Source: Rhizophagus irregularis
Lineage: Eukaryota > Glomeromycota > Glomeromycetes > Glomerales > Glomeraceae
NCBI RefSeq assembly: GCF_026210795.1
Contig: NC_089435.1
Span: 1,674,001-1,738,000, forward strand
Reading direction: 5' to 3'
Length of the DNA: 64,000 nt
Below are positions 15,019-62,480 of the stretch, in pieces. The translations under genes were made by a program, and so were the position numbers. The notes under the pieces are model-generated. The model was not told where the DNA came from, ran no database searches, and saw only the letters and a list, made by a program, of their open reading frames with translations. Every line of letters starts with the position of its first letter. The first letter of the stretch is position 1.

Positions 15019-17040
15019 TCAAGGATAAATTTTACCAAGTTTTTTAATACAAATACCGTAAGGTCTAATATCATCACTTTGTGGACTAATCCAATATTCG
15101 CCAATACTAGTGTTAATTTTATTTAAAGTTTGAGGATTTACTCTATTTTGAAATACAAGACAATAAACTTCGTTATTATGAATAAATTTATTAGCAAATA
15201 AAGCCGCAACATTGATATCAGGAGTAGAATAAATTCCATATCCAAATTTAAATCTTTTTCCCTTTGTAATATCAAAACCAGTTTCAGCAATTGATCTTGC
15301 ATTAAATTTATCTGTTCCATGATAAGAAACAGGCCATTCGTTTGGGTCTGATTCATAACGCCAAGATCCTTTTTTAGCTGCTTTACCTAACCAAGCATTA
15401 TCTCCATATTTATTTAATACTTTAACGGCAATTCGTTTCCAACCGCACGGTCTGCGATATTCGTACGATCCTCTCATAAATTTTATATCATCAACAATAT
15501 TCGTAAAATCACAATCATACATTGGATCAAGGAAATCTGAATCAATAAAATTAATAACTTCATTATTTTGGCCAATCAAATTAATCATTGCATTATTATT
15601 TAATATATTATAATCTAATAATGTTAGATTATCTTTTAATAAAATTCCCGAATAAATCAATCGTTGTTGATTTGATGGAATTCTAGTTTTACTTTCAATA
15701 TGAAATTTTATGACAGAAATTTTTGCGATAATTGGAACATTTTTAATTGGAATTATTTGTCCATTTAACGTGCAAATTCTAATGACTATCATGGTCGGTT
15801 TTTGAGAAATTTGATTAGAATTTTGCTGAATTTGTTTAGAAATTTGTGACTGTTGTGAATGCTGCGATTGAATTTGTTGAGAAAGTTGCGATTGTTGCGA
15901 TTGAATTTGTTGAGAAAGTTGCGATTGTTGCGATTGAATTTGAGAAAATTGCGATTGTTGCGATTGTTGCGAGTGAATTTGTTGAGGAAATTGCGATTGT
16001 TGCGAGTGAATTTGTTGAGAAAATTGCGATTGTTGCGAGTGAATTTGTTGAGGAAATTGCGATTGTTGCGAGTGAATTTGTTGAGGAAATTGCGATTGTT
16101 GCGATTGAATTTGTTGAGGAAATTGCGATTGTTGCGATTGAATTTGTTGAGAAAATTGCGATTGTTGCGATTGAATTTGTTGAGAAAGTTGCGATTGTTG
16201 CGATTGAATTTGTTGAGGAAATTGCGATTGTTGCGATTGAATTTGTTGAGAAAATTGCGATTGTTGCGATTGTTGCGATTGAATTTGTTGAGAAAATTGC
16301 GATTGTTGCGATTGTTGCGACTGAATTTGTTGAGAAAATTGCGATTGTTGCGATTGTTGCGATTGAATTTGTTGAGAAAATTGCGATTGTTGCGATTGTT
16401 GCGATTGAATTTGTTGAGAAAGTTGCGATTGTTGCGATTGTTGCGATTGTTGCGATTGTTGCGAGTGAAGCGCTTGCAATTGTTGAGATTGAATTTGTTG
16501 AGGAAATTGCATCTGAATTTGAGACAATTGCGATTGAATTTGTTGAGGAATGTGCGATTGAGCTAGTTGAAAAACTTGAAATTTTTGGGCAATATGCTGT
16601 TGAAAAGGGAAAATTTGTTGAGAAATTTGTTGAGGAAGTTGAGTAATTTGTTGCTGTAAAGAAGACATCATAAAATTATTCGGGTTTACAATAAAACACT
16701 GCGTATTATTTGCAGAACAAAAATGAGAAGATTCTTGAGTAGAAAAAGAGGTATCAGAAGCAAATTGGGAATCGGAACAATCAATATCATGTTGATTGAT
16801 ATTTTCGTTTCCTTGCGAAGAATAATGAGGATCAAGATCATCATTATTATTTTGTACTTCCCCACCAGCTAAATAAGAACTATGGAGTGATACTGGATTA
16901 ATGTTTTGATAAGTAGCGTTATTTATCCCATTGTGTATTTGATTCAAATACTCTGATTGTGATATAATGGATAAACCGGTCAATGATTTGAGGGCTGCAG
17001 CAACAAGTGATGAATTTGAATTATCAAAATTGTATGCCAT
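15019..17040 (-). CDS. Gln/Ser-rich, ubiquitin-like and ADP-ribosyltransferase-like fusion protein
   Basis: I choose the ATG at 17040 (MAYNFDNSNSSL, 673 aa). An upstream in-frame ATG at 17124 exists but lies beyond a palindrome. Residues about 130-410 are a tandem QQIQSQQSQF-type repeat, prion-like in composition. Residues about 413-490 look ubiquitin-like (IRICTLNGQIIPIKNVPI; SNQQRLIYSGILLKD with the IYSG loop). Residues about 528-673 resemble a PARP-fold ADP-ribosyltransferase family: RPCGWKRIAVKVL, then YHGT (the HG[ST] motif), FKFGYGIYST (the conserved Tyr) and GEYWISP with a candidate Glu, ending RPYGICIKK. The frame is intact and intronless. Linkage of a ubiquitin-like module to an ART module suggests a role in ubiquitin or ADP-ribose signalling, which is inference. 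The large antisense frames across the repeat are shadows. Confidence 0.7.
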   Translation of the reverse strand: MAYNFDNSNSSLVAAALKSLTGLSIISQSEYLNQIHNGINNATYQNINPVSLHSSYLAGGEVQNNNDDLDPHYSSQGNENINQHDIDCSDSQFASDTSFSTQESSHFCSANNTQCFIVNPNNFMMSSLQQQITQLPQQISQQIFPFQQHIAQKFQVFQLAQSHIPQQIQSQLSQIQMQFPQQIQSQQLQALHSQQSQQSQQSQQSQLSQQIQSQQSQQSQFSQQIQSQQSQQSQFSQQIQSQQSQQSQFSQQIQSQQSQQSQFSQQIQSQQSQFPQQIQSQQSQLSQQIQSQQSQFSQQIQSQQSQFPQQIQSQQSQFPQQIHSQQSQFPQQIHSQQSQFSQQIHSQQSQFPQQIHSQQSQQSQFSQIQSQQSQLSQQIQSQQSQLSQQIQSQHSQQSQISKQIQQNSNQISQKPTMIVIRICTLNGQIIPIKNVPIIAKISVIKFHIESKTRIPSNQQRLIYSGILLKDNLTLLDYNILNNNAMINLIGQNNEVINFIDSDFLDPMYDCDFTNIVDDIKFMRGSYEYRRPCGWKRIAVKVLNKYGDNAWLGKAAKKGSWRYESDPNEWPVSYHGTDKFNARSIAETGFDITKGKRFKFGYGIYSTPDINVAALFANKFIHNNEVYCLVFQNRVNPQTLNKINTSIGEYWISPQSDDIRPYGICIKKLGKIYP

Positions 17041-17090
17041 CTTTGATATATTTTTCTTTAAAAAAGAAAAATATATCAAAGATGGCATAC
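17034..17090. repeat. 57-nt near-perfect palindrome over the start codon
   Basis: The sequence reads into and out of itself with arms of about 27 nt around a central AAA. Its left arm is TATGCCATCTTTGATATATT and continues TTTCTTT; the right arm is the exact complement. The start codon of the ART-like gene (minus strand ATG GCA TA) lies in one arm and is duplicated in inverted form in the other. An mRNA starting upstream would fold into a strong hairpin covering the initiation codon. It could also be a fold-back insertion or an assembly artefact. Confidence 0.85.
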
Positions 17091-17199
17091 AGAGTTTATA
17101 TAAAAATTTTCCCCCATTCAACATTCAAATATTACTTAATTTAGAAAACTCAATGAAGGTGATCATTTTCATTAGAATTAAATTTTTAATTTATTAACA

Positions 17200-39273: not shown

Positions 39274-41086
39274 TTATCCGGTATCCCGTGATTTTTTCCA
39301 GTTTTTTTATAATTGTCGATCACTATGATAAATCATGTATTAAGCAATAAAATCTTTATATTGTATATTAGGCGTTATTTATATACTACAATATACATCA
39401 ATTGTTATAAATTGAACAATTATTATAGTAATATTTATTTATAATAATTTTTTTTCTTTTTTTCTTTTTATTATTATTAATATCTATATTTTTGTTAGTA
39501 GAAGTTTCCTGTAATGGCCGCTTGTTCTTATTTTCCAATAATTCCGAAGCCTTGCTAAATCCAGATAATACAATTTCTCCATGTTGCATATTGTCATCAC
39601 ATTGCACTTCATTATCATACTGTATTTCAGTTTTTGAGTTGATATCTGACGTATCTTCAGTTAACCTTTGCATAACCGAACCTAGAATCTTCCTTTTCTT
39701 TTCTTTTGTTACTTTAAGGTAATTACGCACTCCTGCAGATGAATTATGACCTGAAATTGCCATTGCTTCAACTTCTTCATTTCCGGCATCAAATATTGAT
39801 TGTATTGCCGTATCTCTTCCTGAATGGTTAGAAATATTTCTTCCGGAAATGTCAATACCGCACGCAATACAGATTTCACGAAACATCCCTCTAATCCGTT
39901 TTTCACCAAGTGCCCAATCATAATACCATTTACCTTTAGAAATTGCTAGTAAATAATATTAAAATTATAGATTTAATGTAATACAATAAAATAAATTAAT
40001 TTACCTGCTGTATTTGTTGAAATTCCTAAGTAAAATTCTTTGGTTATACAATCTGAGGGTCTCATTGAAATATATTTGCGAATATCTGCATTGGGTTCAG
40101 CTTTACCTTTAACATCTGATGGAAATGGAATTTCAAATGTATATTGGTTACTTTCCAACCCTCCTTGATCATTTTTTTGATGAAATTTCTTAAAAATAAA
40201 TCCATTATCTGTATCTTCAAATTGATTAATTAGTAAATTATAATGTTCACCACCTCGTGGACATCCTAATAAACATATCCATAAAAATACTCTTCTAAGT
40301 AATCCTTCAGGATTATTAAAAGACACAGCATCATGATCTAAAATAATTTTTAATTCGTCATTTGTCAAGCCTTCATGTGGCTTTGCCGCGCCTATTCCTA
40401 ACTTTTTCATCTCTTTTAATGTGCCATCAAGAGTAGCATGTAACTTTGGAAAATGATTTTTATCTAAAAGGTTATAGTTCCATTGTGGAATGGTGTCTTT
40501 AAGATGGCGGCTTATTGAAGCAACTGCATTTTTAAGTGAAGCTCTTGAATATCGCTCTCCAGATTTTGTTCTTATACCGTAAATAAACTCGCACATTTCT
40601 TTTTCAATTTGTTGATTAGAGGAAAGTGATTCTAATGTATATTTATAGCCTACATCTTCATGATTTCGCCAAGAATTTAAAATATTAATCCATTTTTTTG
40701 TACATTTAACTGTATTTTGTGGTACATGACTTTCTTGAACCTTTAAAAGTTCCTTAGCTGTAGGTTTAAAATAAGACTAAAAATTTATTAGTTTTTAAAA
40801 TATAATGATTTTAATAACAATCTGTATTTATAAAATACTTACTTCTTTTATATTCTCCATTATTTTACATTGAAATAATGTGCATAAAGAAATTATTGAA
40901 AGAGGTTAAAGAGGTTTATGTAAAAAAATATTAAAGGAGGTTATATGTAAAGAAATTATAAAAGAGGTTCGTGTAAAAAAAAAATTAAAAGAGGTTACAC
41001 GTAAAAGAGATTATGTGAAGAGAAAAAAAGCTTAAAAAAGCTTAAATAAATGATTTGTAATCACATAATCACAGGATACCGGATAA
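39274..41086. mobile_element. tyrosine-recombinase (Crypton-type) element with inverted ends
   Basis: The ends are TTATCCGGTATCCCGTGATT at 39274-39293 and its inverse with one mismatch at 41067-41086. They enclose a single recombinase gene (39398-40860). Inside the right end, 40905-41025, are about five copies of a unit like AAAGAGGTTATATGTAAAG. No target duplication is visible at the boundaries, as expected for a recombinase-mediated insertion. Known Cryptons generally lack long inverted ends, so this architecture is unusual. The open gene and near-identical ends suggest a young, possibly active copy. Confidence 0.65.
39398..40860 (-). CDS. Crypton-type tyrosine recombinase, three exons
   Basis: Exons 40860-40843 (MENIKE), 40776-40005 and 39945-39398 join in phase (0, then 1) through GTAAGT/TTTAG and GTAAAT/ACTAG, giving 445 aa. 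The N-terminal part (TKKWINILNSWR, YSRASLKNAVASISRHL) resembles the core-binding region. The catalytic domain shows all expected residues: Arg in CPRGGEHYNLL, Lys in SKGKWYYDWALGEKRIRG, HSGR, His in AISGHNSS and the nucleophile Tyr in GVRNYLKV. The RGGEHYNL and NHSGR/SGH context is that of the DUF3504/Crypton family (related to the domesticated ZMYM/QRICH1 group in animals). The protein cuts and rejoins DNA through a Tyr-DNA bond. Lys-rich C-terminus. The gene appears intact. Confidence 0.8.
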
Positions 41087-41262: not shown

Positions 41263-43068
41263 TCATTCGCATTCTTGATCAACGATCACCTGGCTCTGAT
41301 ATAGGTGTAATTCCTATATTGGTCAAAATATTTAAATAAGATTAAAATAAAGTCAATATACTTACGAATCTTGGTTTTCCATTCTTCGGAAGTCCACCCA
41401 CAATACAAACTAAATACAATCCGCTATTGAAATAAGTATAACAAATTTTACATTATTCATTTTTAATTTATGTATTAGAAATGGGTTTATATACTTATTA
41501 TTTGATAATTTATAAAAAAAAAAGATTTATTTAAATTACAAACTAAGAAATTTGTAAAATATTTACTACTCTAGTCCTAGTGTTTAAATAATTCTAAGAA
41601 GAGAATACTTATATTTAATATTTGATAAAATATAAAAAAAAGGAATTATTTAAATTACAAACTAAGAATCTTTAAAATATTTTACTACTCTAGCCTTAGT
41701 GTTTAAATAAATCTAAAAAGAGTAAAGTGAAGAACAATTTTTTGTTAAATGCATGATATCAAATATTACAAAAAAAAAAGCTATATCTTTTTAAAACACA
41801 AATAATTAGTTAATTTTCATTTGTTTTAATATCTAAATATTAAATAAATAAATTAATTAATTTGTAAATTAATTTATTTTATATTATACCAGCTAAATTA
41901 TATACAATTTACATACCTAATTTCAGCATACATTCATTCAAGTCTTCGCTTACTAGCATTTCACTCACTTGTACAGTAGTTTGTGAATTTTTACTTTCAA
42001 GAATTTCATTCAATTGTTTACTAGTAAAATTAAGTAAGCGACTTGTATAGCAAGCCTGTGAGTGAGATTCAGTAGCAAGATTGTTATGCCCAATTGGTGC
42101 ATTTATAAATTCCATAATATTGCATTTTAATTCTTCATTAATATCTTCAATTTTTTTACCACGAGGAAGAGAAGTCCATTCAAGAATAATTTCTAAAACT
42201 TCCTTAGAAGATGGTCTTTTTAATGGATCTTCATCCCAACATTTTTTCATCAAATCAACATAGCATTGTGGAGTATTTTCAATAATTTCAGGACGTTCAC
42301 CTTCACAAATACTTAAACTAAGTTGAATATCATGTGCTCTATTATTAAATGGTGGTATTCCAGATGTAAATTCCCACATAATCATAGAAAAACTATATAT
42401 ATCACTAGCTGGAGTATAAGGTTTGCCTCTTAATACTTCAGGTGCCATAAATGGTACAACACCATAAATATTATGTTCTTCCAATAATGATTTTACAGGT
42501 TGACATAATCCTAAATCACTAATAAAAATTTTACTCTCATCATGATTTAAAATATTGCCATCATGAAAATCATGATGGATAAGATTTTGATTATGTATAT
42601 TTTTAAGTCCAGAAATAATTTCATACAACATGCATAATTTTTGATCCCAACCACTTTCAACTATTCTTGTTAAGTTTCCTCTTAAATTACCTTTGTTTGC
42701 ATAATCCATTACCGCCATATATTTCAAAGTATCTGGATTTTTTGTAAATCCATAAAAATAAATAATTTCATATGAATCTAAACAACTTTCATGATATTTC
42801 CACTATAAAAAATAATAATATATTAATATAAGTACATTATAATTTAAATTAAAAAAATAGTAATATACTATCATACTTCATTTAAAAATTCATTTAAATT
42901 TTCATTTAAATTATCATGACATTTAAGAATTACTTCTCTATCTTTATTATTATACGACCAAATGGCTTTGTATATAGTACCAAATCCTCCTTTATTAAGA
43001 TATTCAACATTTTTAAAATTATTATAAGGAATCCGTATTAACTTTTTTTCAAAAATAAATTCATCCAT
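41263..43068 (-). CDS. TKL-like protein kinase, four exons
   Basis: Exons 43068-42877, 42802-41917, 41409-41366 and 41313-41263 join in frame (phases 0, 1, 0), giving 390 aa. Introns use GTATGA/TATAG, GTATGT/TTTAG and GTAAGT/TATAG. The kinase domain is complete: Gly loop NKGGFGTIYKA, Lys in EVILKCHDN, catalytic loop LIHHDFHDGNIL, a DFG-position SDLGL, APEVLRG, DIYSFSMIMWEF and KRPSSKEVLEI. The style is that of the very large Glomeromycotina TKL/Sel1-type kinase family. HHDFHDGN keeps the catalytic Asp and Asn, and SDLG keeps the metal-binding Asp, so activity is plausible. The frame stays open upstream of the ATG to an acceptor (ACTGTAG) at about 43094, so the real start may lie further upstream, beyond or within the intron array. 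If exons 3-4 are not used, the protein stops at 41909. Confidence 0.75.
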
Positions 43069-43139: not shown

Positions 43140-46100
43140 AAAATTTACACTAAAATTTAAGATTAAAATTAACACTTACTCTAAAATTTAAATAGGAATT
43201 TGAGATAATTTATGTCTTAGTTTTTGTATAAATATATAATAATAAGCTATATTTCATAACTTACCAACTAAAGTAATAGAAATTTTAAAAGAATACAGTT
43301 AGCAAATAAATATCTAGCAATAGAATTAAATAAATAACGTACCATCTATAAAATAATTTTTTAAATAAAGAAATTTAGTTAGTTTAAATTATATGTAAAT
43401 ATTATAACAATAAGTTAATAATAGAATTAAATAAATAACTTACTCCCTATATTATTTAAATAATTTTTTAAATAAAGAAATTTAGTTAGTTTAAATTATA
43501 TGTAAATATTATAACAATAAGTAATAATAGAATTAAATAAATAACTTATGACTTACCAACTAAAATAAATTACAAAATAATTTTTTAAATAAAGAAATTT
43601 AGTTAGTTTAAATTATGTGTAAATATTATAACAATAAGTAATAATAGAATTAAATAAATAACTTACGTTCTATTAGTAAATAAATAAAGAAATTAGATAG
43701 TTTAAATTATATGTAAATATTATAACAATAAGTAATAATAGAATTAAATAAATAACTTACTCCCTATATTATTTAAATAATTTTTTAAATAAAGAAATTT
43801 AGTTAGTTTAAATTATATGTAAATATTATAACAATAAGTAATAATAGAATTAAATAAATAACGTACGATCTATAAAATAATTTTTTAAATAATAAAATTT
43901 AGTTAGTTTAAATTATATGTAAATATTATAACAATAAGTAATAATAGAATTAAATAAATAACTTACTCCCTATATTATTTAAATAATTTTTTAAATAAAG
44001 AAATTTAGTTAGTTTAAATTATATGTAAATATTATAACAATAAGGAATAATAGAAATAAATAAATAACTTACTCCCTATATTATATAAATAATTTTTTAA
44101 ATAAAGAAATTTAGTTAGTTTAAATTATATGTAAATATTATAACAATAAGTTAATAATAGAATTAAATAAATAACTTACTCCCTATATTATTTAAATAAT
44201 TTTTAAATAAAGAAATTTAGTTAGTTTAAATTATATGTAAATATTATAACAATAAGTAATAATAGAATTAAATAAATAACTTACGAACTATATTATTTAA
44301 ATAATTTTTTAAATAAAGAAATTTAGTTGGTTTAAATTATATGTAAATATTATAACAATAAGTAATAATAGAATTAAATAAATAACGTACCATCTATAAA
44401 ATAATTTTTTAAATAAAGAAATTTAGTTAGTTTAAATTATATGTAAATATTATAACAATAAGTAATAATAGAATTAAATAAATAACTTACGAACTATATT
44501 ATTTAAATAATTTTTTAAATAAAGAAATTTAGTTAGTTTAAATTATATGTAAATATTATAACAATAAGTAATAATAGAATTAAATAAATAACTTACGAAC
44601 TACATTATTTTAAATAAAGAAATTTAGTTAGTTTAAATTATATGTAAATATTATAACAATAAGTAATATTAGAATTAAATAAATAACTTACGAACTATAT
44701 TATTTAAATAATTTTTTTAAATAAAGAAATTTAGTTAGTTTAAATTATATGTAAATATTATAACAATAAGTAATAATAGAATTAAATAAATAACGTACCA
44801 CCTATAAAATAATTTTTTAAATAAAGAAATTTAGTTAGTTTAAATTATATGTAAATATTATAACAATAAGTAATAATAGAATTAATAAATAACTTACGAA
44901 CTATATTATTTAAATAATTTTTTAAATAAAGAAATTTAGTTAGTTTAAATTATATGTAAATATTATAACAATAAGTAATAATAGAATTAAATAAATAACT
45001 TACTCCCTATATTATTTAAATAATTTTTTAAATAAAGAAATTTAGTTGGTTTAAATTATATGTAAATATTATAACAATAAGTAATAATAGAATTAAATAA
45101 ATAACTTACTCGCTATATTATTTAAATAATTTTTTAAATAAAGAAATTTAGTTAGTTTAAATTATATGTAAATATTATAACAATAAGTAATAATAGAATT
45201 AAATAAATAACGTACCATCTATAAAATAATTTTTTAAATAAAGAAATTTAGTTAGTTTAAATTATATGTAAATATTATAACAATAAGTAATATTAGAATT
45301 AAATAAATAACGTACCATCTATAAAATAATTTTTTAAATAAAGAAATTTAATTAGTTTAAATTATATGTAAATATTATAACAATAAGTAATATTAGAATT
45401 AAATAAATAACTTACAAGCTATTATTTAAATAATTTTTTAAATAAAGAAATTTAGTTAGTTTAAATTATATGTAAATATTATAACAATAAGTAATAATAG
45501 AATTATATAAATAACTTATGACTTACCAACTAAAATAAATTACAAAATAATTTTTTAAATAAAGAAATTTAGTTAGTTTAAATTATACAGTATGTAAATA
45601 TTATAACAATAAGTAATAATAGAATTAAATAAATAACTTACAAGCTATTATTTAAATAATTTTTTAAATTTAGAAATTTGGTTAGTTTAAATTATATAAT
45701 ATTATAACAATAAGTAATAATAGAATTAAATAAATAACTTACTCCCTATATTATTTAAATAATTTTTTAAATAAAGAAATTTAGCGTTTATTATATGTAA
45801 ATATTATAACAATAAGTAATAATAGAATTAAATAAATAACTTACTCCCTATATTATTTAAATAATTTTTTAAATAAAGAAATTTAGTTAGTTTAAATTAT
45901 ATGTAAATATTATAACAATAAGTAATAATAGAATAAAATAAATAAATTTCTACAAGCTATTATTTAAATAATTTTTTAAATAAAGAAATTTAGTTAGTTT
46001 AAATTATATGTAAATATTATAATAATAAGTAATAATAATAGAATTAAATAAATAACTTACTCCCTATATTATTTAAATAATTTTTTAAATAAAGAAATTT

Positions 46101-48020
46101 AGTTAGTTTAAATTATATAAATATTATAACAATAAGTAATAATAGAATTAAAATAAATAATCTTACTCCCTATAATATTAAATAATTTTTTAAATAAAGA
46201 AATTTAGTTAGTTTAAATTATATAAATATTATAACAATAAGTAATAATAGAATTAAATAAATAACTTACGAACTATATTATTGGGGCCACTTTAAATAAA
46301 GAAATTTAGTTAGTTGAATATATATAAATATTATAACAATAAGTAATAATAGAATTAAATAAATAACGTACCATCTGTAAAATAATTTTTTAAATAAAGA
46401 AATTTAGTTAGTTTAAATTATATGTAAATATTATAACAATAAGTAATAATAGAATTAAATAAATAACGTACAATCTATAAAATAATTTTTAAATAAAGAA
46501 ATTTAGTTAGTTTAAATTATATGTAAATATTATAACAATAAGTAATAATAGAATTAAATAAATAACGTACCATCTATAAAATAATTTTTTAAATAAAGAA
46601 ATTGTTAGTTTAAATTATGTGTAAATATTATAACAATAAGTAATAATAGAATTAAATAAATAACTTACGTTCTATTAAATAAATAAAGAAATTAGATAGT
46701 TTAAATTATATGTAAATATTATAACAATAAGTAATAATAGAATTAAATAAATAACTTACGTTCTATTAAATAAATAAAGAAATTAGATAGTTTAAATTAT
46801 ATGTAAATATTATAACAATAAGTAATAATAGAATTAAATAAATAACTTACTCCCTATATTATTTAAATAATTTTTTAAATAAAGAAATTTAGTTAGTTTA
46901 AATTATATGTAAATATTATAACAATAAGTAATAATAGAATTAAATAAATAACTTACTCCCTATATTATTTAAATAATTTTTTAAATAAAGAAATTTAGTT
47001 AGTTTAAATTATATAATATTATAACAATAAGTAATAATAGAATTAAATAAATAACTTACTCCCTATATTATTTAAATGATTTTTTAAATAAAGAAATTTA
47101 GTTAGTTTAAATTATATGTAAATATTATAACAATAAGTAATAATAGAATTAAATAAATAACTTACGAACTATATTATTTAAATAATTTTTTAAATAAAGA
47201 AAATTAGTTAGTTTAAATTATATGTAAATATTATAACAATAAGTAATAATAGAATTAAATAAATAACGTACCACCTATAAAATAATTTTTTAAATAAAGA
47301 AATTTAGTTAGTTTAAATTATATGTAAATATTATAACAATAAGTAATAATAGAATTAAATAAATAACTTACGTTCTATTAAATAAATAAAGAAATTAGAT
47401 AGTTTAAATTATATGTAAATATTATAACAATAAGTAATAATAGAATTAAATAAATAACTTACGTTCTATTAAATAAAGAAGAAATTAGATAATTTAAATT
47501 ATATGTAAATATTATAACAATAAGTAATAATAGAATTAAATAAATAACTTACGTTCTATTAAATAAATAAAGAAATTAGATAATTTAAATTATATGTAAA
47601 TATTATAACAATAAGTAATAATAGAATTAAATAAATAACGTACCATCTATAAAATAATTTTTTAAATAAAGAAATTTAGTTAACTTAATTGTATTACAAT
47701 AGAAATATAGACATCATATAACTTACACCCTGAATTATTATTAATTTTTAATTAGTTAAATATAGATATAAATATAATAGAAAGATATTCACTATAAATT
47801 GAATATATTACTTACAATCTATTTATTTTAAATTAAGAATATAATTAGTTAAATTATATTAAAATATTAATAAATAAGTCTAATATTAAATATAGCATTC
47901 TTAAGTATTATAACTTACCAGCTGTAATAATATTTAAACATAGAATTTAGTTATTTGATTATTATGTAAAATAAATAGTAAAAAACTAAAATTTAAATAA
48001 CTGATAACTTACAAACTTAT
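43140..48020 (-). repeat. tandem array of ~48 intron-like units separated by 3 nt
   Basis: The units are ~90-125 nt. On the minus strand each reads GTAAGTTATTTATTTAATTC ... TTTAAACTAACTAAATTTC ... AAATAATATAG: a consensus donor, a CTAAC branch-site motif ~40 nt from the end, and an AG acceptor. Between the AG of one unit and the GT of the next there are, in almost all units, exactly three nucleotides (GGA, TTC, ATG, AAC, TTG, CTT, GTG, ATC, ATT, CGA, GGT, CTG or TTT). None of these is a stop codon. Donors vary only as GTAAGT or GTACGT. The outermost units (47700-48020) have diverged in body sequence but keep donor, branch site, acceptor and spacing. At 43140-43185 two units have one nucleotide instead of three. 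The array lies directly upstream of the kinase gene on its strand. One unit, near 45950, has lost its donor. Confidence 0.85.
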
Positions 48021-48024
48021 AGTA

Positions 48025-48970
48025 TTATTAACCATAAATAAATTATTTAGTTACATAGAATATAATGATAATAATTAATTTTTAATATAATTTTTATATA
48101 ATATGATAGTTAGTTTATATTTGCAAAATTGTTTAAAAATTTGATGGGATAATTCTAATTTTATTTTATAGCTGTATGATTACCTTTATGATCCATTACT
48201 ATATCAAATTCTTCCTAATTGGAAAGATAAAGTGAATATGTATATCCTTTTTTCTTTTTTTTTATTTATCTTAAACGCCTTATTAGTACAGATATTAAAA
48301 TGGTAATAATATTTATGCAAAACGCATTGTATACAAAATGTTGATCGCAAGTACAAGTTGTATGACGCATGTCCGGAATGCATGTTGTAAGACCTAAGTC
48401 CGTATAATAATACGTTTGCCACCTTAGGACTTAACAAAATAATACTTTATTAATAATATAAATAAATACAATAATATGCTTAGTAGTTTAACAATACTAT
48501 AAAATAATAACTAAATATTTATCCAAATATTTCCCTAAATTCGTAACCTGATTTTCCACAATGTCGCCTTTATACAAAGAAACTTCTGCGCATCCCTTTT
48601 TATTAGTTTAACTGCAAAATCTGAAAATATCCTTATCTCATATAACTTTATACTCATAAAAACTACAAGTATTAGTACTTGTTATTTTTCATGTTTTTGA
48701 AATTTCCATTTTTCTTCGTTTTTGATCTTCAAAACCCTTTCCTTAAATGTTAATATCCTAATTATAGATTCTTTCATCATGATCTACAAATCAATCACAT
48801 GATTTCCAATCATCTGATAATCATCTGACTTAAATCTTTCATCTTGGACGTTACATTTCAATATTAAATACTAAAAATTTTAGAAAAAAAAAAAAAACTC
48901 TTCCCCCTTTCCGTCTGATTTCATAGAAATCCGCAGTATACACAAATTTTTTATTTTTTAAAATTTTTAA
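48025..48970. other. gap, possible upstream exon only
   Basis: On the minus strand a 31-nt exon-like piece (CAATTAG | GAAGAATTTG... | GTAATC) lies at about 48188-48218, in line with the array. Nothing else is supported; the 77-codon minus frame at 48204-48437 has no features. Confidence 0.35.
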
Positions 48971-50429: not shown

Positions 50430-52065
50430 GAAGCTGGTGAAAACCTACAAAAAAGAAAGTAAAGAAACGTTAGTTAACGTTTCTTAAAAAAAAATTAATA
50501 AAAATTAAGTTTCACAACCAATGTTGCGAAACTCACCGGTTCGTTTTGATTTCCATTATCCAAACGTCCGGAACCTACAAAAAGTAAAAAAGAAATGTTA
50601 GGTAATATTTCTTTTAAAAAAAAAGAACAAAAATTAAGTTTCGCAATGTAACATTGCAAAACTTACCGGTCGTTTCATTCATTCTAACATCTGGAACCTA
50701 CAAAAAGTAAAAAAGAAATGTTAGTTAACGTTTCTTTTAATAAAAAAAAAACAAAATTAAGTTTCGCAATGTAACATTGCGAAACTTACCGGTCATTTCA
50801 TTCATTCTAACGTCCGGAACCTACAAAAGTAAAAAAGAAACGTTAGTTAACGTTTCTTTTAATAAAAAAAAACAAAAATTAAGTTTCGCAATGTAACATT
50901 GCGAAACTTACCGGTCGTTTCATTCATTCTAACGTCTGGAACCTACAAAAATTAAAAGAAAGAAACGTTTAGTATCGTTTCTTTAAAAAAAATTAATAAA
51001 AATTGTTTCGCAACACAATGTTGCGAAACTTACCGGTTCATTTCGAAGTTCATTATCCAAACGTCCAGAATCTACAAAAATTAAAAGAAAGAAACGTTTA
51101 GTATCATTTCTTTAAAAAAAAATAATTAAAAAAATAAGTTTCACAATACAATATTGCGAAACTCACCGGTTCGTTTCGATTTCTATTATCCAAATGTCCG
51201 GAATCTACAAAAAGTAAAAGAAACGTACGTTAGTATCGTTTCTTTAAAAAAAAACATAATTAAAATTAAGTTTTGCAACAATTGTTGCAAAACTTACCGG
51301 TTCATTTCGAGTTTCAAACGTCCAGAACCTACAAAAAAAAAAGAAAGAAACGTTAGTTAACGTTTCTTTTAATAAAAAAAATCAATAAATTAAGTTTCGC
51401 AACGATTCGTTGCAAAACTCACCGGTTCGTTTCATCCAAACGTCTGGAACCTACAAAAAGAAGGAAAGAAACATTAGTTAACGTTTCTTTTAATAAAAAA
51501 AAAAATTTAACAAAAAAAAGAAAATATTACCTTTCTTCCAAAGTCCGGGTCATAATTTCGTCCGGCGTTCTTACAAAAAGAAGAAAGGAAACGTTAGAAA
51601 CGTTTCCTAAAAGAAATTAAAAAAAAAAGTAAGTTTTGAACACGAAACTTACCATTTCACTTTCCGAAGTTGAAGACCTACACAAAAGAAAAATAGGAAA
51701 CGTTAGAAACGTTTCCTTACAAAAAAGAATTAAAAAAATTTTTTTTAAAAAAGTTTTGAAGCGAACGCTTCGAAACTTACCATTTTCGTTTCCTCGTTTC
51801 CTAAGTCAAAAATACCGAAAGACCCAAAAAAAAAATAAAGGATCGTTAAAAATGATCCTTATAAAAGCAAAAAAAAAAATTTATTTTAAAGTTTCAAAGC
51901 GAAACGCTTCGAAACTTACCATAATTTCAGTAGTCAAAACATCGAAAATCCTACAAAAAAGAAAGAAAGGAAATGTTAGAAACGTTTCCTTACAACAAAG
52001 AATTAAAAAAAAAAAATTTAAATTTAAAAAAGTTTCGAAGCGTTTCACTTCGAAACTTACCATTG
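50430..52065 (-). repeat. array of ~14 mini-exon/hairpin-intron units
   Basis: Each ~110-120-nt unit on the minus strand reads TTTTTGTAG | 25-38 nt | GTAAGT (or GTGAGT). The exon-like parts are related (GTTCCGGACGTTTGGATAAT..., ending ACCG or ATG). The introns consist of two hairpins. The first contains the donor itself (TAAGTTTCGCAATG / CATTGCGAAACTTA). The second, AGAAACGTTA / TAACGTTTCT, stands just before the pyrimidine tract and acceptor. Stem sequences change from unit to unit in a paired way (GGATC..GATCC in one unit for GAAAC..GTTTC in others; GAAGCG..CGCTTC for GCAATG..CATTGC). Exon lengths 28, 31 and 38 do not keep one frame, so a protein product is unlikely. Confidence 0.8.
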
Positions 52066-58830: not shown

Positions 58831-58935
58831 GACGAAGCCTATTTTCATACCGATTTTGATAGTAATAAGATGGGAAACATTTTAGAATTTATTAATTGAA
58901 GAAAAAAATTTTTAGGTTATTAGTACACAACCAGT

Positions 58936-61520
58936 ATGGCAACAAGCAATCGAACTTGTGATAGATGTGGAAAGGCTTTTGCAACTCCACAAAAGCTTCG
59001 TGGGCATCAAAATAGAAAGTTTCTATGCAAGCCTGCAGCTAAACCTCAGGATCCCACACCTGAGATTGTACAATTGCAACCACAACTGGAGCAATTCCAG
59101 GATCCCACACCTGAAATTGTACAATTGCAATCACAACCGGAGCAACTCCAGGATCCCACACCTGAAGTTATCCCAGCTCATGCAGAGAAAACTCCTAACT
59201 TAACAATTGATGAACTAGCAAAATGGTTAGCAGAACCTGGTGATTACAATCAATATACTCCACGAAAAAGAAGAGCTCCCCAAACAGATAATGAATGGTT
59301 TGCTTATATGCAAGGAGATTATAGAGGAAGATGGTGTGATATTCAATTTGTAAAAAGAGTTCATGATCCTGCACGTTCACATAAATCTCTAAAACATAAG
59401 ACAGTATGGCAAGCTAATCTTAAACCAAATGTTAGAGATATACCATATTTTCCAAGTATAATAGCTGATACCCGTCAGAAAATAACAGAAATTCTTGAGA
59501 GTGAACTTGAAGAAAAAGGGCAAATCAAATCAGCTATCACTATATTGGCTACATATACAGATAATAGTGGAACAAATAAACAAGTTTATCATAGAGGAGT
59601 CATGCGTGTACTTCTTTTAAAGAATGATATAGATGATCATTTAACAAAATCAGCAGTGGATATCACGGATAAAATTGTCAAATTTATGAAAGGAGGGTCT
59701 GGTTGGAAAATTGTTAGTATAGATATATTAACTATTGAGACGTATACTTACCGCCGAGCAGAAGGAAGCTCATACATTCTTACACCTAAGGCACTTGCAA
59801 ATAAGAAGTGCACTATCAATCCGGATAACAAAGATCTCATAGATCCGGACACAGGCTTGCTCTCTGAAAAATGTTTGCAAGGGGCTTTAGGTGCTTACTT
59901 TGCATATAAAGATGGGCATACACAAAAACTTGAGCGAATCTTTCGGGCAGAAAAATTTAAGCCATACTTGGAACAAGTCAATCTCAATGCAATTCCCATG
60001 CCCACTCCTGTTTATCCACGCATATTTAGCAAGATTGAGGACCTCAATCCTGAGATCTCCATTAATGTATGGGAATGGGAGGAGAAAACTGGTATTCCAA
60101 AACCTGTTATTGCAAGTAAGAATTACAACCGTCAACATATCATTCACCTCATGGCCCTTACAGATATTACAAAATCAGATGAAGGAAAGTATGGTCAGAA
60201 GAATCACTTCCTTTGGATTAAGAATCCTGATGCTTTAATATACAAAGATACATCCCACAAGGGAAAGAAGCATCTTTGCAATCGGTGCTTCCAAAGCTTT
60301 CCATTGTCTAAATCTTTAACTAATCATCAGGAATGGTGTTTTGGATTAGGTGAGACACCACAAAGAGTTGAGTTACCAGTTAAAGGTAAGAATGATTTTG
60401 AGGAGTTTAAGAATTTTAACCGAACAATGTATGCTCCATGTGTAATTATTGCAGACTTTGAGGCTGATAACAGAAAGTGTAATGAAAACTATGGTGGAAA
60501 TATGCATAAGATTATGGAGCAAAAGGCTAATAGCTTCTGCTATATGGTCCACTGGATTGAAACTGATGAGACATGGGGGCCATTCTTATACCGAGGACCA
60601 AATGCAACAGAAGAGTTTGTCAGCAGACTTGATAAAGAATTAAGAAGGATTAATGATGTTTTAGAAGTAAAAGTAGAACGTATTATAACAGAGGAAGCTA
60701 AAAAGGAATTCACTGAAGCAGTTAGTTGTTGGATATGTAATGGAAATTTCAATCAGGGCATGCAAGACAAAAAAGTTTGGGATCACTGCCACATCACAGG
60801 TAAGTTTCGTGGGGCTGCTCATAATGCATGCAATCTTAAGCTTCAAATCGAAGCATGGAAGACTCCAATTCCTGTAGTATTTCATAACTTCCGTGGCTAT
60901 GACTTCCATTTAGTTTGTGAATCTGTTGGACGATCAATTGGAGCATATCAAATCAAAGTTATTGCAGAGACATTCGAACGTTACAAATCCATGAAGGTAG
61001 GGCAATTCAAGTACATTGATAGCATGCAGTTCATGTCCTCCAGTCTTGCAAACCTTGCAAAGAATTTAGGGACAGATAAACCCCTCACAAAGCGACACTT
61101 CAAAAACTTCTCGTCTGAACATATTGACTTAATCACACGTAAGGGGGTTTATCCTTATGAATATATTGATTCACATGATCGTTTCAAGGAGACAGAACTC
61201 CCATCTATTCATGACTTTCATAGTACTCTTGGAGGAAAGATCACTCAGGATAATTACAAACATGCACAAAAAGTTTGGAAGGAATTTGGCTGCAAGAACT
61301 TGGGCGAGTATCATGACCTTTATCTTAAGACTGATGTTCTTCTCCTAGCAGATGTCTGGACAAAGTTTCGACAGACAGCGATGCATCATTATGGACTTGA
61401 CCCAAGTCATTATGTCTCTGCTCCAGCACTTTCATGGGATGGCATGCTTAAGATGACTGGAGTCAAAATAGAGCTATTCACTGACATGACCATGCATGAT
61501 TTTACTGAAAAGGCTAAACG
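58936..61520 (+). mobile_element. Polinton/Maverick-like family-B DNA polymerase fossil, incomplete
   Basis: A long open frame encodes, in order: a C2H2 finger (CDRCGKAFATPQKLRGH...), three copies of a 17-residue QDPTPEIVQLQ repeat, a middle region, a second finger-like CNRCFQSF...HQEWC, exonuclease motif I (VIIADFEAD), an endonuclease VII-type His-Me domain (CWICNGNF...VWDHCHITGKFRG), and exonuclease motifs II and III (VVFHNFRGYDFHLV; LKTDVLLLADVW). This layout is that of polymerases from Polinton-like elements and related virus-like elements; linear-plasmid polymerases are the alternative. No polymerase palm domain, capsid, ATPase or integrase was seen in the window. The element is incomplete; the long open frame suggests that it is not very old. 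Confidence 0.75.
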
Positions 61521-62480
61521 TTGTAAACGGTCGAATATCAAGCATGAGAATATGATAAAATTCAATCACCAAATGTAATTGTCAAATATTAAGAACGAAC
61601 AAACTAATTATGAATTGGCGTGGATGGATAAATAATTAGCCAAAAAGGATAAACATTTAGAAAGAGTAATGATCTGCATGATGTAATATTTATTGAATGA
61701 TTGACAAAGAACCAATAGGATAAATAGAGTCGATCAATTGGGGCTTAGCAATCTTTAACAATAAGAACGATAAGAAAGAATAATTATAAGCCACAAAAGA
61801 TAGATTATAAGTAAAACATATAAAGCGGATTAAAAGAACATATAAAATAATGTCAGAAAGATTAAAGAACGTAAAATAATATAAAAGATAATATAAAAAG
61901 ATAATACAAAGATACTATAAAAGATAATATATATATATAAAAGATAGCATATTAAAAGATAGCGTATTTAAAATATAGATAGTATATTAGGAAGATAGTT
62001 CAAAGATAATATGTAAAAAGAACATAAAAGATAGTATATAGATAGAATAGAAAGTAGCGTAAAATTTGTATAAATAGAGAACAGAATTCAAAGTAATTCC
62101 ATAGTTCTCATCCACAGAACTCAATAAAAATATAAGTTTTATTTAATTATTTGTTAATGAAGTTTAATGTTAATTAAAGGTAATAGGTTCGCCCTAAACT
62201 TTAATTAATGTTCGCTTAATTAATTTTAATTAAACAAATGAAAATTTTAAGATGAATTAAATATATGTTTTTGAAAAGTAATAATTCGTAGCGAGAGCTA
62301 TCGAAGTTTGAAATTAAAGGTAAAAGTGGATATAATTTGGGGAAAATTTAGAGAAGTTAATTTTATTTTATATCGTTCAACGTTTTATATTACTAACGCT
62401 ATTTATTTTGTGAACCAAGAATGTTGTTGTATGTTGTTCGTTAATTTTGTTGTTTGTTAATTATGTTGTTGAGTAATCGC

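What the first reader, a model, noticed from the sequence alone, without database searches (positions are those of the whole stretch)
43140..48020. About 48 tandem introns separated by single codons upstream of a kinase gene
Seen: nearly every ~100-nt unit on the kinase strand has GTAAGT/GTACGT, a CTAAC-like branch motif and an AG, with exactly 3 nt between AG and the next GT. Thirteen different trinucleotides occur, none a stop. Diverged outer units (47700-48020) keep these signals although their bodies have changed, and in some units the acceptor changes from TATAG to ACAG or TTCAG while remaining a valid site. Close to the kinase, two units have one nucleotide instead of three; 1+1 nucleotides plus the first base of the kinase exon make one codon in the open kinase frame. 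Known: recursive splice sites (AG|GT) and very small exons exist (a single-nucleotide exon has been reported in Arabidopsis), but I know of no array like this. Inference: either serial micro-exons that add a variable peptide, or a stepwise-splicing device that removes a 5-kb leader, amplified by tandem duplication. The lack of stops is weak evidence because the units are not independent.
Basis: partly seen in the sequence, partly recalled or inferred. Interest (0 to 1): 0.88.

Follow-up and report, generated by a model that had tools for sequence, protein, structure and literature searches.

The report
Kinase gene with 48 single-codon exons
In a mycorrhizal fungus, the start of a kinase gene appears to be cut by about fifty tandemly copied introns into exons of only three letters each, so that copying one repeat unit adds exactly one amino acid to the protein; the DNA evidence is strong but RNA has not been checked.

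Summary
On the minus strand, 48 exons of exactly 3 nt and one of 1 nt lie between a 13-nt first exon (48196-48184) and the kinase exon (from 43093). A splice parse blind to exon length recovers this, and the joined sequence reads open into the kinase. The genome is probably Rhizophagus irregularis DAOM197198. Genome-wide, one unit-junction pattern occurs 1,049 times with exactly 3 nt and 15 times with 0-2 or 4-15 nt; on three contigs 12 of 13 multi-unit clusters lie upstream of a same-strand family kinase. Decisive test over 17 loci: codons formed across adjacent micro-exons contain 0 stops of 551 (14.9 expected), while pairs two to five exons apart contain chance numbers. So neighbouring micro-exons are very likely joined and translated, in a frame where each codon straddles a junction. 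Searches found no public protein with this N-terminus. No RNA was examined; 6 of 17 loci do not parse cleanly. Most likely: a kinase family whose N-terminal segments grow one residue per duplicated intron unit.

The parts
48197..48326 (-). upstream block (promoter / 5' UTR) conserved next to the start codon
   Evidence: The 130 nt before the ATG are 63% identical on average among 10 loci (26% in shuffled controls); 48% at -230 to -100 and 30% (control 28%) at -400 to -230 in 8 loci
48184..48196 (-). exon 1, ATGGATCATAAAG (M D H K + 1 nt)
   Evidence: 12 of 12 loci in which a short ATGGA.. first exon was found have 13, 19 or 22 nt, all 1 mod 3, ending AG|GTA (9 of them listed with length)
48013..48015 (-). 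micro-exon TTT (outer unit)
   Evidence: corresponding unit TTT/TTG/TTA/TCA in many other loci
47919..47921 (-). micro-exon CTG (outer unit)
47816..47818 (-). micro-exon ATT (outer unit)
47727..47729 (-). micro-exon GGT (outer unit)
43343..47646 (-). variable tandem array: 43 three-nt micro-exons separated by introns of about 100 nt
   Evidence: coordinates of every micro-exon; tandem periods 106/206/312
43265..43267 (-). last 3-nt micro-exon TTG (outer unit)
   Evidence: TTG 24, TTA 3, TCG 2, TCA 1 of the 30 loci matched
43180..43180 (-). 1-nt exon A
   Evidence: A with a GTAAG donor in 33 of 37 3' ends by script; of the other four, three keep A with donor GTGAGT, GTAGGT or GTAAGT in the listing and one (C9) has T; exact motif at 79 places in the genome
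42877..43093 (-). kinase exon 1 (A TTT GGA CAA ...; reads E-F-G-Q after splicing)
   Evidence: the codon that is ATG in the window is Met in 11 of 36 paralogous exons read and another residue in 25
42803..42876 (-). ordinary 74-nt intron in the kinase
41909..42802 (-). kinase exon 2, ends at TAA 41911-41909
   Evidence: Pfam PF07714 E=2.3e-41 over residues 82-329 of the spliced product

Best explanation
This is a protein-coding micro-exon gene. A transcript starting near 48.2-48.3 kb has a 13-nt first coding exon, 48 exons of 3 nt, one exon of 1 nt and two kinase exons. All 50 introns of the leader are removed and all micro-exons are kept (inferred from selection, not seen in RNA). Codons are built across the junctions: last nt of one micro-exon plus first two of the next. 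The predicted product begins MDHKVSDWYEQQRVRRRKQHDYVRRTWRTFAYDARIRVLLHVRRRNRKLGNV and runs into the kinase (EFGQSENK...). The repeat unit, one intron plus 3 nt of exon, duplicates in tandem; since nearly every unit carries exactly 3 nt, gain or loss of units lengthens or shortens the protein by whole residues without shifting the frame. Splicing is probably by intron definition and one intron after another, because neighbouring splice sites 3 nt apart can hardly be occupied at once (inference). The result is a kinase family with similar ends (such as A-L-S-D-W ... E-F-G) and a middle whose length and sequence differ among all loci parsed; its role as a variable regulatory or recognition tail is a guess.
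For: (1) Splice parse blind to exon length gives 48x3 nt + 1 nt and an open frame into the kinase. (2) Stops in junction codons over 17 loci: adjacent pairs 0 of 551 (shuffle mean 14.9; 0 of 5,000 shuffles as low); two apart 14 of 527 (14.3 expected), three 17 of 503, four 15 of 479, five 16 of 457; the other junction frame has 86 stops. Over globally distinct pairs 0 of 225 against 9 of 232 two apart, Fisher p=0.002. Restricted to the 10 of 17 loci with a perfect blind parse: 0 of 254, 6.1 expected, P=0.0006. (3) Spacing of one unit pattern: 1,049 junctions of 3 nt, 7 of 0-2 nt, 8 of 4-15 nt (five of 6 nt, one of 9, two of 4), while 601 intron lengths fall 186/191/224 in the three residues mod 3. 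(4) Short first exons are 1 mod 3 in 12 of 12 loci; exon 1 (phase 1) + 3n + 1 nt is what the kinase frame needs. (5) Conserved block just before exon 1. (6) 12 of 13 multi-unit clusters on C1-C3 lie within 5 kb upstream of a found same-strand family kinase, 0 of 13 near a found opposite-strand one. (7) A minimal paralogue with only 8 micro-exons reads MDHKALSDWYAFDFGKSGNK. (8) In the relaxed parse 11 of 17 loci are clean and open into the kinase. (9) 14 of 120 listed public models begin with the first whole codon of the kinase exon and are marked partial; for two of them (P0012, P0034) the locus was matched here.
Against: No RNA or protein evidence was available. Six of 17 parsed loci are not clean under the relaxed parse (C24, C21, C31, C16, C7:3148, C17: extra exons of 1, 2, 6, 7, 8, 10, 11 or 12 nt), and C31 has a stop in the kinase exon; some may be pseudogenes or hold insertions. 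In one further locus (C23) no 3' end was found. One multi-unit cluster of 13 (C2:19.5-23 kb) and 4 of 5 single units had no family kinase found within 5 kb. In the clean subset the second-neighbour control is lower than expected too (3 of 244, 6.0 expected, P=0.09), though the third is not (9 of 234). The kinase exon has an in-frame ATG in the window and a Met there in 11 of 36 paralogues, and many public models start at it. Five public models seem to read micro-exons in another frame. The window has lost one outer exon (CTN) and the last CTT.
Confidence: 0.87

Rival explanations
1. The micro-exons are translated in frame 0 (each 3-nt exon is one codon) and reach the kinase through a 5-nt exon AGTAA instead of the 1-nt A. 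This is what several public gene models seem to show (e.g. P0038, P0053, P0068, ending ...L-S-K-F/S-G-K-S).
For: Only 2 of 575 micro-exons are stops in frame 0; five of 120 listed public models look by eye like such chains (P0037, P0038, P0053, P0068, P0089), two of them from R. diaphanus; long first exons are open in both phases near the donor in C11, C25 and C5:4726.
Against: Frame 0 predicts nothing about neighbours, yet junction stops are absent only between neighbours. The donor after A is GTAAG in 33 of 37 3' ends by script, whereas the donor needed after AGTAA varies (GTAATA in 8 of 34, otherwise GTGTTA, GTGTTG, GTATTG, GTGATA, GTAGTG, GTGTTT). The short first exons are all phase 1. Two public models (P0116, P0033) look by eye like chains in the junction frame. 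[quoted passage not shown] PMC12940212, passages), which would force the AGTAA choice.
Confidence: 0.07
2. The array is a satellite or a run of amplified introns with no coding role; the whole leader is removed or never transcribed and the kinase starts within its own exon.
For: Tandem periods and high similarity of units; unit copies at many places and on both strands of the genome; an in-frame ATG in the window's kinase exon, Met in 11 of 36 paralogues, used as the start in many public models.
Against: Neighbour-specific stop avoidance, 3-nt spacing kept in 1,049 of 1,064 junctions, orientation tied to kinases where checked, no Met at that position in 25 of 36 paralogues, conserved block upstream of exon 1.
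Confidence: 0.04
3. Recursive-splicing ratchet or splicing regulator: introns are removed stepwise, but the micro-exons are mostly skipped, exon 1 being joined to the 1-nt A exon; the array acts through splicing time or as a decoy.
For: Exon 1 + A + kinase exon is also in frame (K-E-F-G; sequence reading), and any skipping of 3-nt exons keeps the frame.
Against: Skipping would put non-neighbours together and should select against stops in those pairs too; over all 17 loci none is seen at distances 2-5. Skipping of the whole array in all molecules would leave neighbour junctions free of constraint.
Confidence: 0.07

Closest known systems
Micro-exon genes (MEGs) of flatworms (Schistosoma, Hymenolepis, Echinococcus)
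   Same: Runs of consecutive tiny exons, mostly multiples of three, hard for gene finders, giving variable proteins (PMC7653826 passages; PMC10526429 passages).
   Different: In S. mansoni MEG exons are mostly 15 bp (6-81 bp in the text, 3-81 in the abstract), 10-20 per gene, with introns of about 100 to 5000 bp, and the proteins are secreted. Here 48 successive exons are 3 nt each, introns are about 100-nt copies of one another, codons straddle all junctions, and the product is a kinase.
Single-nucleotide exons (APC11 of Arabidopsis; CYP621A of Fusarium)
   Same: A 1-nt exon in AG|N|GT context needed for the frame (PMC4674806 and PMC12940212, passages).
   Different: Those are isolated exons with transcript proof; here the 1-nt exon follows a run of 3-nt exons and lacks transcript proof.
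Recursive splicing
   Same: Successive removal of neighbouring introns is the likely route (suggested for the 1-nt exon of APC11 in PMC4674806, passages; otherwise recalled).
   Different: Ratchet points leave nothing in the mRNA (recalled); here 3 nt stay per step.
Tandem repeat proteins with one repeat per exon
   Same: Length change by unit duplication without frameshift (recalled).
   Different: The repeat unit is nearly all intron; the coding part of each unit is a single triplet.

Membership tests
Micro-exon genes (working definition of PMC7653826) | at least 7 exons; micro-exons (<70 nt, divisible by 3) make up at least half; runs of at least 4 | tested here: met
   52 coding exons, 48 of 3 nt in one run (definition); a prediction, not an annotation
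Micro-exon genes (flatworm family) | N-terminal signal peptide, secreted protein | tested here: not met
   By inspection the product starts MDHKVSDWYEQQRVRRR, charged, and continues into a kinase; no signal-peptide program was run
Micro-exon genes | micro-exons present in mRNA, with skipping isoforms | not testable with these tools
   no RNA reads available
Single-nucleotide exon | AG|N|GT context, needed to keep the frame, conserved | tested here: met
Single-nucleotide exon | seen in transcripts | not testable with these tools
   no RNA reads available
Recursive splice sites (zero-length exons) | AG directly followed by GT, nothing retained | tested here: not met
   3 nt between AG and GT in 1,049 of 1,064 junctions of one pattern, 0 nt in 1
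Satellite DNA | orientation and position independent of genes, no coding constraint | tested here: not met
   (orientation checked on contigs C1-C3 and in the fetched loci only)
Protein kinases, PF07714 | Pfam score above gathering cut-off | tested here: met
   142.2 bits against a cut-off of 23.1
Introner-like elements | similar introns scattered singly in many unrelated genes (recalled) | tested here: inconclusive
   units cluster in tandem upstream of one kinase family where checked; 4 of 5 single units on C1-C3 were not assigned to a gene

The most novel reading that the evidence does not exclude
A tandem-repeat array in which each repeat is one intron carrying a single triplet of exon has become a one-residue-at-a-time protein-diversifying device: more than a thousand candidate 3-nt exons in one fungal genome build hypervariable N-terminal segments on a large kinase family, with every codon of the segment assembled across a splice junction; 48 in a row in the window gene, and perhaps 70-90 in two larger but less cleanly parsed genes.
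Probability: 0.8. Interest if true: 0.95.

Novelty: new variant of a known kind. Interest (0 to 1): 0.92.

Why it matters
If true, it sets an extreme for the number of smallest exons in a row, implies that a spliceosome can accurately join some 50 successive introns separated by one triplet, and shows a way for a repeat array to change a protein by single residues without frameshifts. It gives a natural test bed for exon against intron definition and for stepwise splicing, and means that N-terminal parts of a large kinase family in a model mycorrhizal fungus are probably mis-annotated. The ten searches of the held paper library, judged from their listings, showed no report of such arrays in this fungus or of tandem single-codon exons elsewhere; most subscription papers and preprints were not covered.

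Tried and rejected
Frame 0 reading with an AGTAA exon: considered because public models seem to use it; ranked below because of neighbour-specific stop avoidance, donor conservation and exon-1 phase. A start codon within the kinase exon: not excluded for single genes, but Met stands there in only 11 of 36 paralogues (in the smaller set it was 2 of 16). A first guess that the gene started at an ATG next to the TTT unit was dropped once the conserved exon ATGGATCATAAAG was seen. Conservation of splice signals against intron bodies in homologous outer introns gave only a weak contrast, since paralogues are similar (body 0.87-0.91, donor 0.93-1.00, acceptor 0.87-0.95). Searching public proteins for the predicted N-terminus of the C8 paralogue found nothing, and for the R. 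diaphanus chain P0068 only itself. No structure was predicted.

Rows left out: one search used the 100 listed of 1,049 junctions (contigs C1-C3), because the listing is cut; one unit count there was typed as 19 instead of 20, without effect on the pairing. One search used runs of at least three 3-nt exons from 17 of 18 loci with array interior; C23 was not parsed as no 3' end was found; for C7:3148 one exon was trimmed by hand to TCG. C24 and C7:3148 might be in frame if exons inside apparent insertions were ignored, but I did not rerun them so. Protein sequences were printed for 30 of the 120 listed hits; N-termini of all 120 were read. Homologous outer introns come from 30 and 21 loci that matched my patterns. 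Part of the output was cut; the same loci are.
Full report
WHAT WAS CHECKED. The minus strand of 43-48 kb was read directly and repeats listed (periods 106, 206, 312 within 43319-47682). A dynamic-programming splice parse that scores donors, branch motifs and acceptors, but has no preference for exon length, was run from exon 1 to the kinase exon. In the window it returns 50 introns, 48 exons of 3 nt and one of 1 nt (coordinates). [CT]AG-N{1-12}-GTA[AC]GT sites number 46 in the array, 45 of them with gap 3, against none on the other strand and a mean of 0.1 in shuffled sequence.

GENOME. The window is C7:1674001-1738000 of a 146.7-Mb, 32-contig genome. The length of contig C13, 5,085,394, equals the scaffold N50 that Manley et al. 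2023 give for their 32-scaffold assembly GCA_026210795.1 of Rhizophagus irregularis DAOM197198 (PMC10234402, passages; their total of 146,773,001 is 24,516 larger than G000), and all 120 listed public proteins are from Rhizophagus as far as named. The naming is an inference.

THE SAME GENE ELSEWHERE. One unit as a BLAST query finds 379 matches in the genome (40 of 603 candidates scored). I fetched 10 further loci, then 4, 3 more plus an extension, twenty 3' ends and twelve 5' ends. The outer units recur, in whole or in part, in the same order: exon 1 ending AG|GTA, then CTN or CCC, TTT/TTG/TTA/TCA, CTG/ATG, ATT, GGT, a variable array, mostly CTT, then TTG/TTA/TCG/TCA, a 1-nt A, and the kinase exon. 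Single outer units are missing in some loci; the window lacks CTN and the last CTT, and C7:288, C21 and C31 go from exon 1 to ATT. The most reduced paralogue (C8:4790401-4791950) has 8 three-nt exons and reads MDHKALSDWYAFDFGKSGNK.

FRAME. Short first exons have 13, 19 or 22 nt in 12 of 12 loci, always one nt beyond whole codons. Adding 3-nt exons keeps that phase; adding the 1-nt A makes the kinase exon read A-TTT-GGA in its known frame. The kinase exon is an unlikely start for the family: the window's ATG is Met in 11 of 36 paralogous exons and another residue in 25 (2 of the 16). The 130 nt before exon 1 are conserved (63% mean identity over 10 loci, 26% for shuffled sequence); this falls to 48% at -230 to -100 and to background at -400 to -230 (8 loci). 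The second 1-nt exon of the finding (T) needs a 31-nt intron and is missing in several loci.

THE STOP TEST. In the predicted frame each codon is the last nt of one micro-exon plus the first two of the next. In the first parse, 24 runs with 531 micro-exons have 0 stops in 507 junction codons (14.3 expected from shuffling exon order within runs; 0 of 20,000 shuffles as low), 76 in the other junction frame (61.7 expected) and 1 in-exon stop. Over 212 distinct neighbour pairs: 0 against 8.5. With the second parse (24 runs, 575 micro-exons, 17 loci): neighbours 0 of 551 (14.9 expected), two apart 14 of 527 (14.3), three 17 of 503 (13.9), four 15 of 479 (13.3), five 16 of 457 (12.9). By locus, 0 of 17 have a stop between neighbours, 6 of 17 between second neighbours; 9 loci have none at distance 2 or 3. 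Globally distinct pairs: 0 of 225 against 9 of 232, p=0.002. The 10 loci with a perfect blind parse: 0 of 254, 6.1 expected, P=0.0006; there the second-neighbour count was 3 of 244 with 6.0 expected (P=0.09), the third 9 of 234 with 5.7. The avoidance is thus specific to exons that would be joined if none is skipped. I take this as evolutionary evidence that full inclusion is the normal mRNA. Tandem copying makes pairs non-independent; the distance controls share that non-independence.

SPACING. AATAATATAG-NNN-GTAAGTTATTTATT occurs 1,049 times (519 and 530 on the two strands; the pattern read backwards 0 times). With gaps of 0-2 it occurs 7 times, with gaps of 4-15 8 times (from the coordinates five of 6 nt, one of 9, two of 4). 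This pattern covers one unit type only. Introns of the parsed loci vary freely: 601 introns below 130 nt, 186/191/224 by residue mod 3.

ORIENTATION. On contigs C1-C3, 13 clusters of at least two such junctions exist among the 100 listed; 12 have a found same-strand family kinase end within 5 kb downstream, 0 of 13 a found opposite-strand one nearby; one cluster (C2:19.5-23 kb) and four of five single units are unassigned. The kinase list is itself made from exact or near-exact motifs and is incomplete. The 3' motif with the 1-nt A occurs exactly 79 times and 113 times with up to one mismatch.

AGAINST. There are no RNA data here. In the blind parse 10 of 17 loci are perfect; in the relaxed parse 11 of 17 are clean and open into the kinase (two of them, C3 and C9, without a found 5' end); C24, C21, C31, C16, C7:3148 and C17 are not, and C31 has a stop in the kinase exon. 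C16 has two 2-nt exons that break its frame. These may be pseudogenes, insertions, or parse faults.

PUBLIC ANNOTATION. Of the best 120 of 1,354 public proteins found with the window product, none covers more than 89% of it. Fourteen begin with the residue of the first whole codon of the kinase exon and are marked partial (P0002, P0012, P0026, P0034, P0045, P0051, P0064, P0075, P0078, P0094, P0099, P0100, P0109, P0113; seven of them from R. clarus, one from R. diaphanus); two of these were matched to loci held here. Five look by eye like chains of single-codon exons in frame 0 (P0037, P0038, P0053, P0068, P0089), two like chains in the junction frame (P0033, P0116). The predicted N-terminus of the C8 paralogue was found in no public protein (one candidate shared words, none scored). 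So annotation pipelines seem to have met these arrays without resolving them.

MECHANISM. Shown by sequence: unit structure, frame, neighbour-specific constraint, family-wide order. Inferred: that all introns are removed and all triplets kept; that introns are recognised across the intron and leave one after another, as proposed for the 1-nt exon of APC11 (PMC4674806, passages). The peptide is rich in R, D, W, L, Y, F, N (551 junction codons) and differs among the loci parsed; its role is unknown, and a variable tail that tunes or directs the kinase is a guess. The R. irregularis kinase repertoire counts 2,533 members (PMC10234402, passage), so a variable tail on one large family could matter for signalling.

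KNOWN OR NEW. Micro-exon genes and 1-nt exons are known kinds. I saw no report of runs of single-codon exons made from tandem introns in the listings of ten searches. I rate it a new variant of the micro-exon gene kind, unusually far from the cases I could read about.

Noticed in passing
window 50442-51506: Tandem array of about 122-bp units with internal palindromes (GTTAGTTAACG...; TTTCGCAA...TTGCGAAA), unrelated to the intron array.
   Followed up: no
window 58924-61578 (+): Long ORF with an endonuclease VII match (PF02945, E=7e-07) and a C2H2-like finger below its cut-off; the rest looks by eye like a mobile-element or virus-like DNA polymerase (recalled resemblance).
   Followed up: partly
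window 15019-17124 (-): 701-codon ORF with a long Q/S-rich repeat and a ubiquitin domain (PF00240, E=2e-12); the repeat is also open in other frames.
   Followed up: partly
window 39398-40776 (-): Two adjacent ORFs that look by eye like a tyrosine-recombinase-type mobile element (recalled resemblance); no Pfam match. Described only.
   Followed up: partly
L027-L028 (C23:2305001-2322000), minus strand: A short array whose outer leader is split by a non-unit insertion and for which no 3' end with the 1-nt A exon was found in the fetched stretch: probably a broken copy.
   Followed up: partly
first exons of public models P0038, P0059: Some family members start MGQC/MGQY, resembling an N-terminal lipid-attachment motif, others MDQC/MDH (motif recalled).
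   Followed up: no
L037-L038 (C16:1436001-1456000): 74 three-nt exons of which many start AG (TATAG|AGN|GTAAGT), giving tandem acceptor choices two nt apart that would shift the frame.
   Followed up: no
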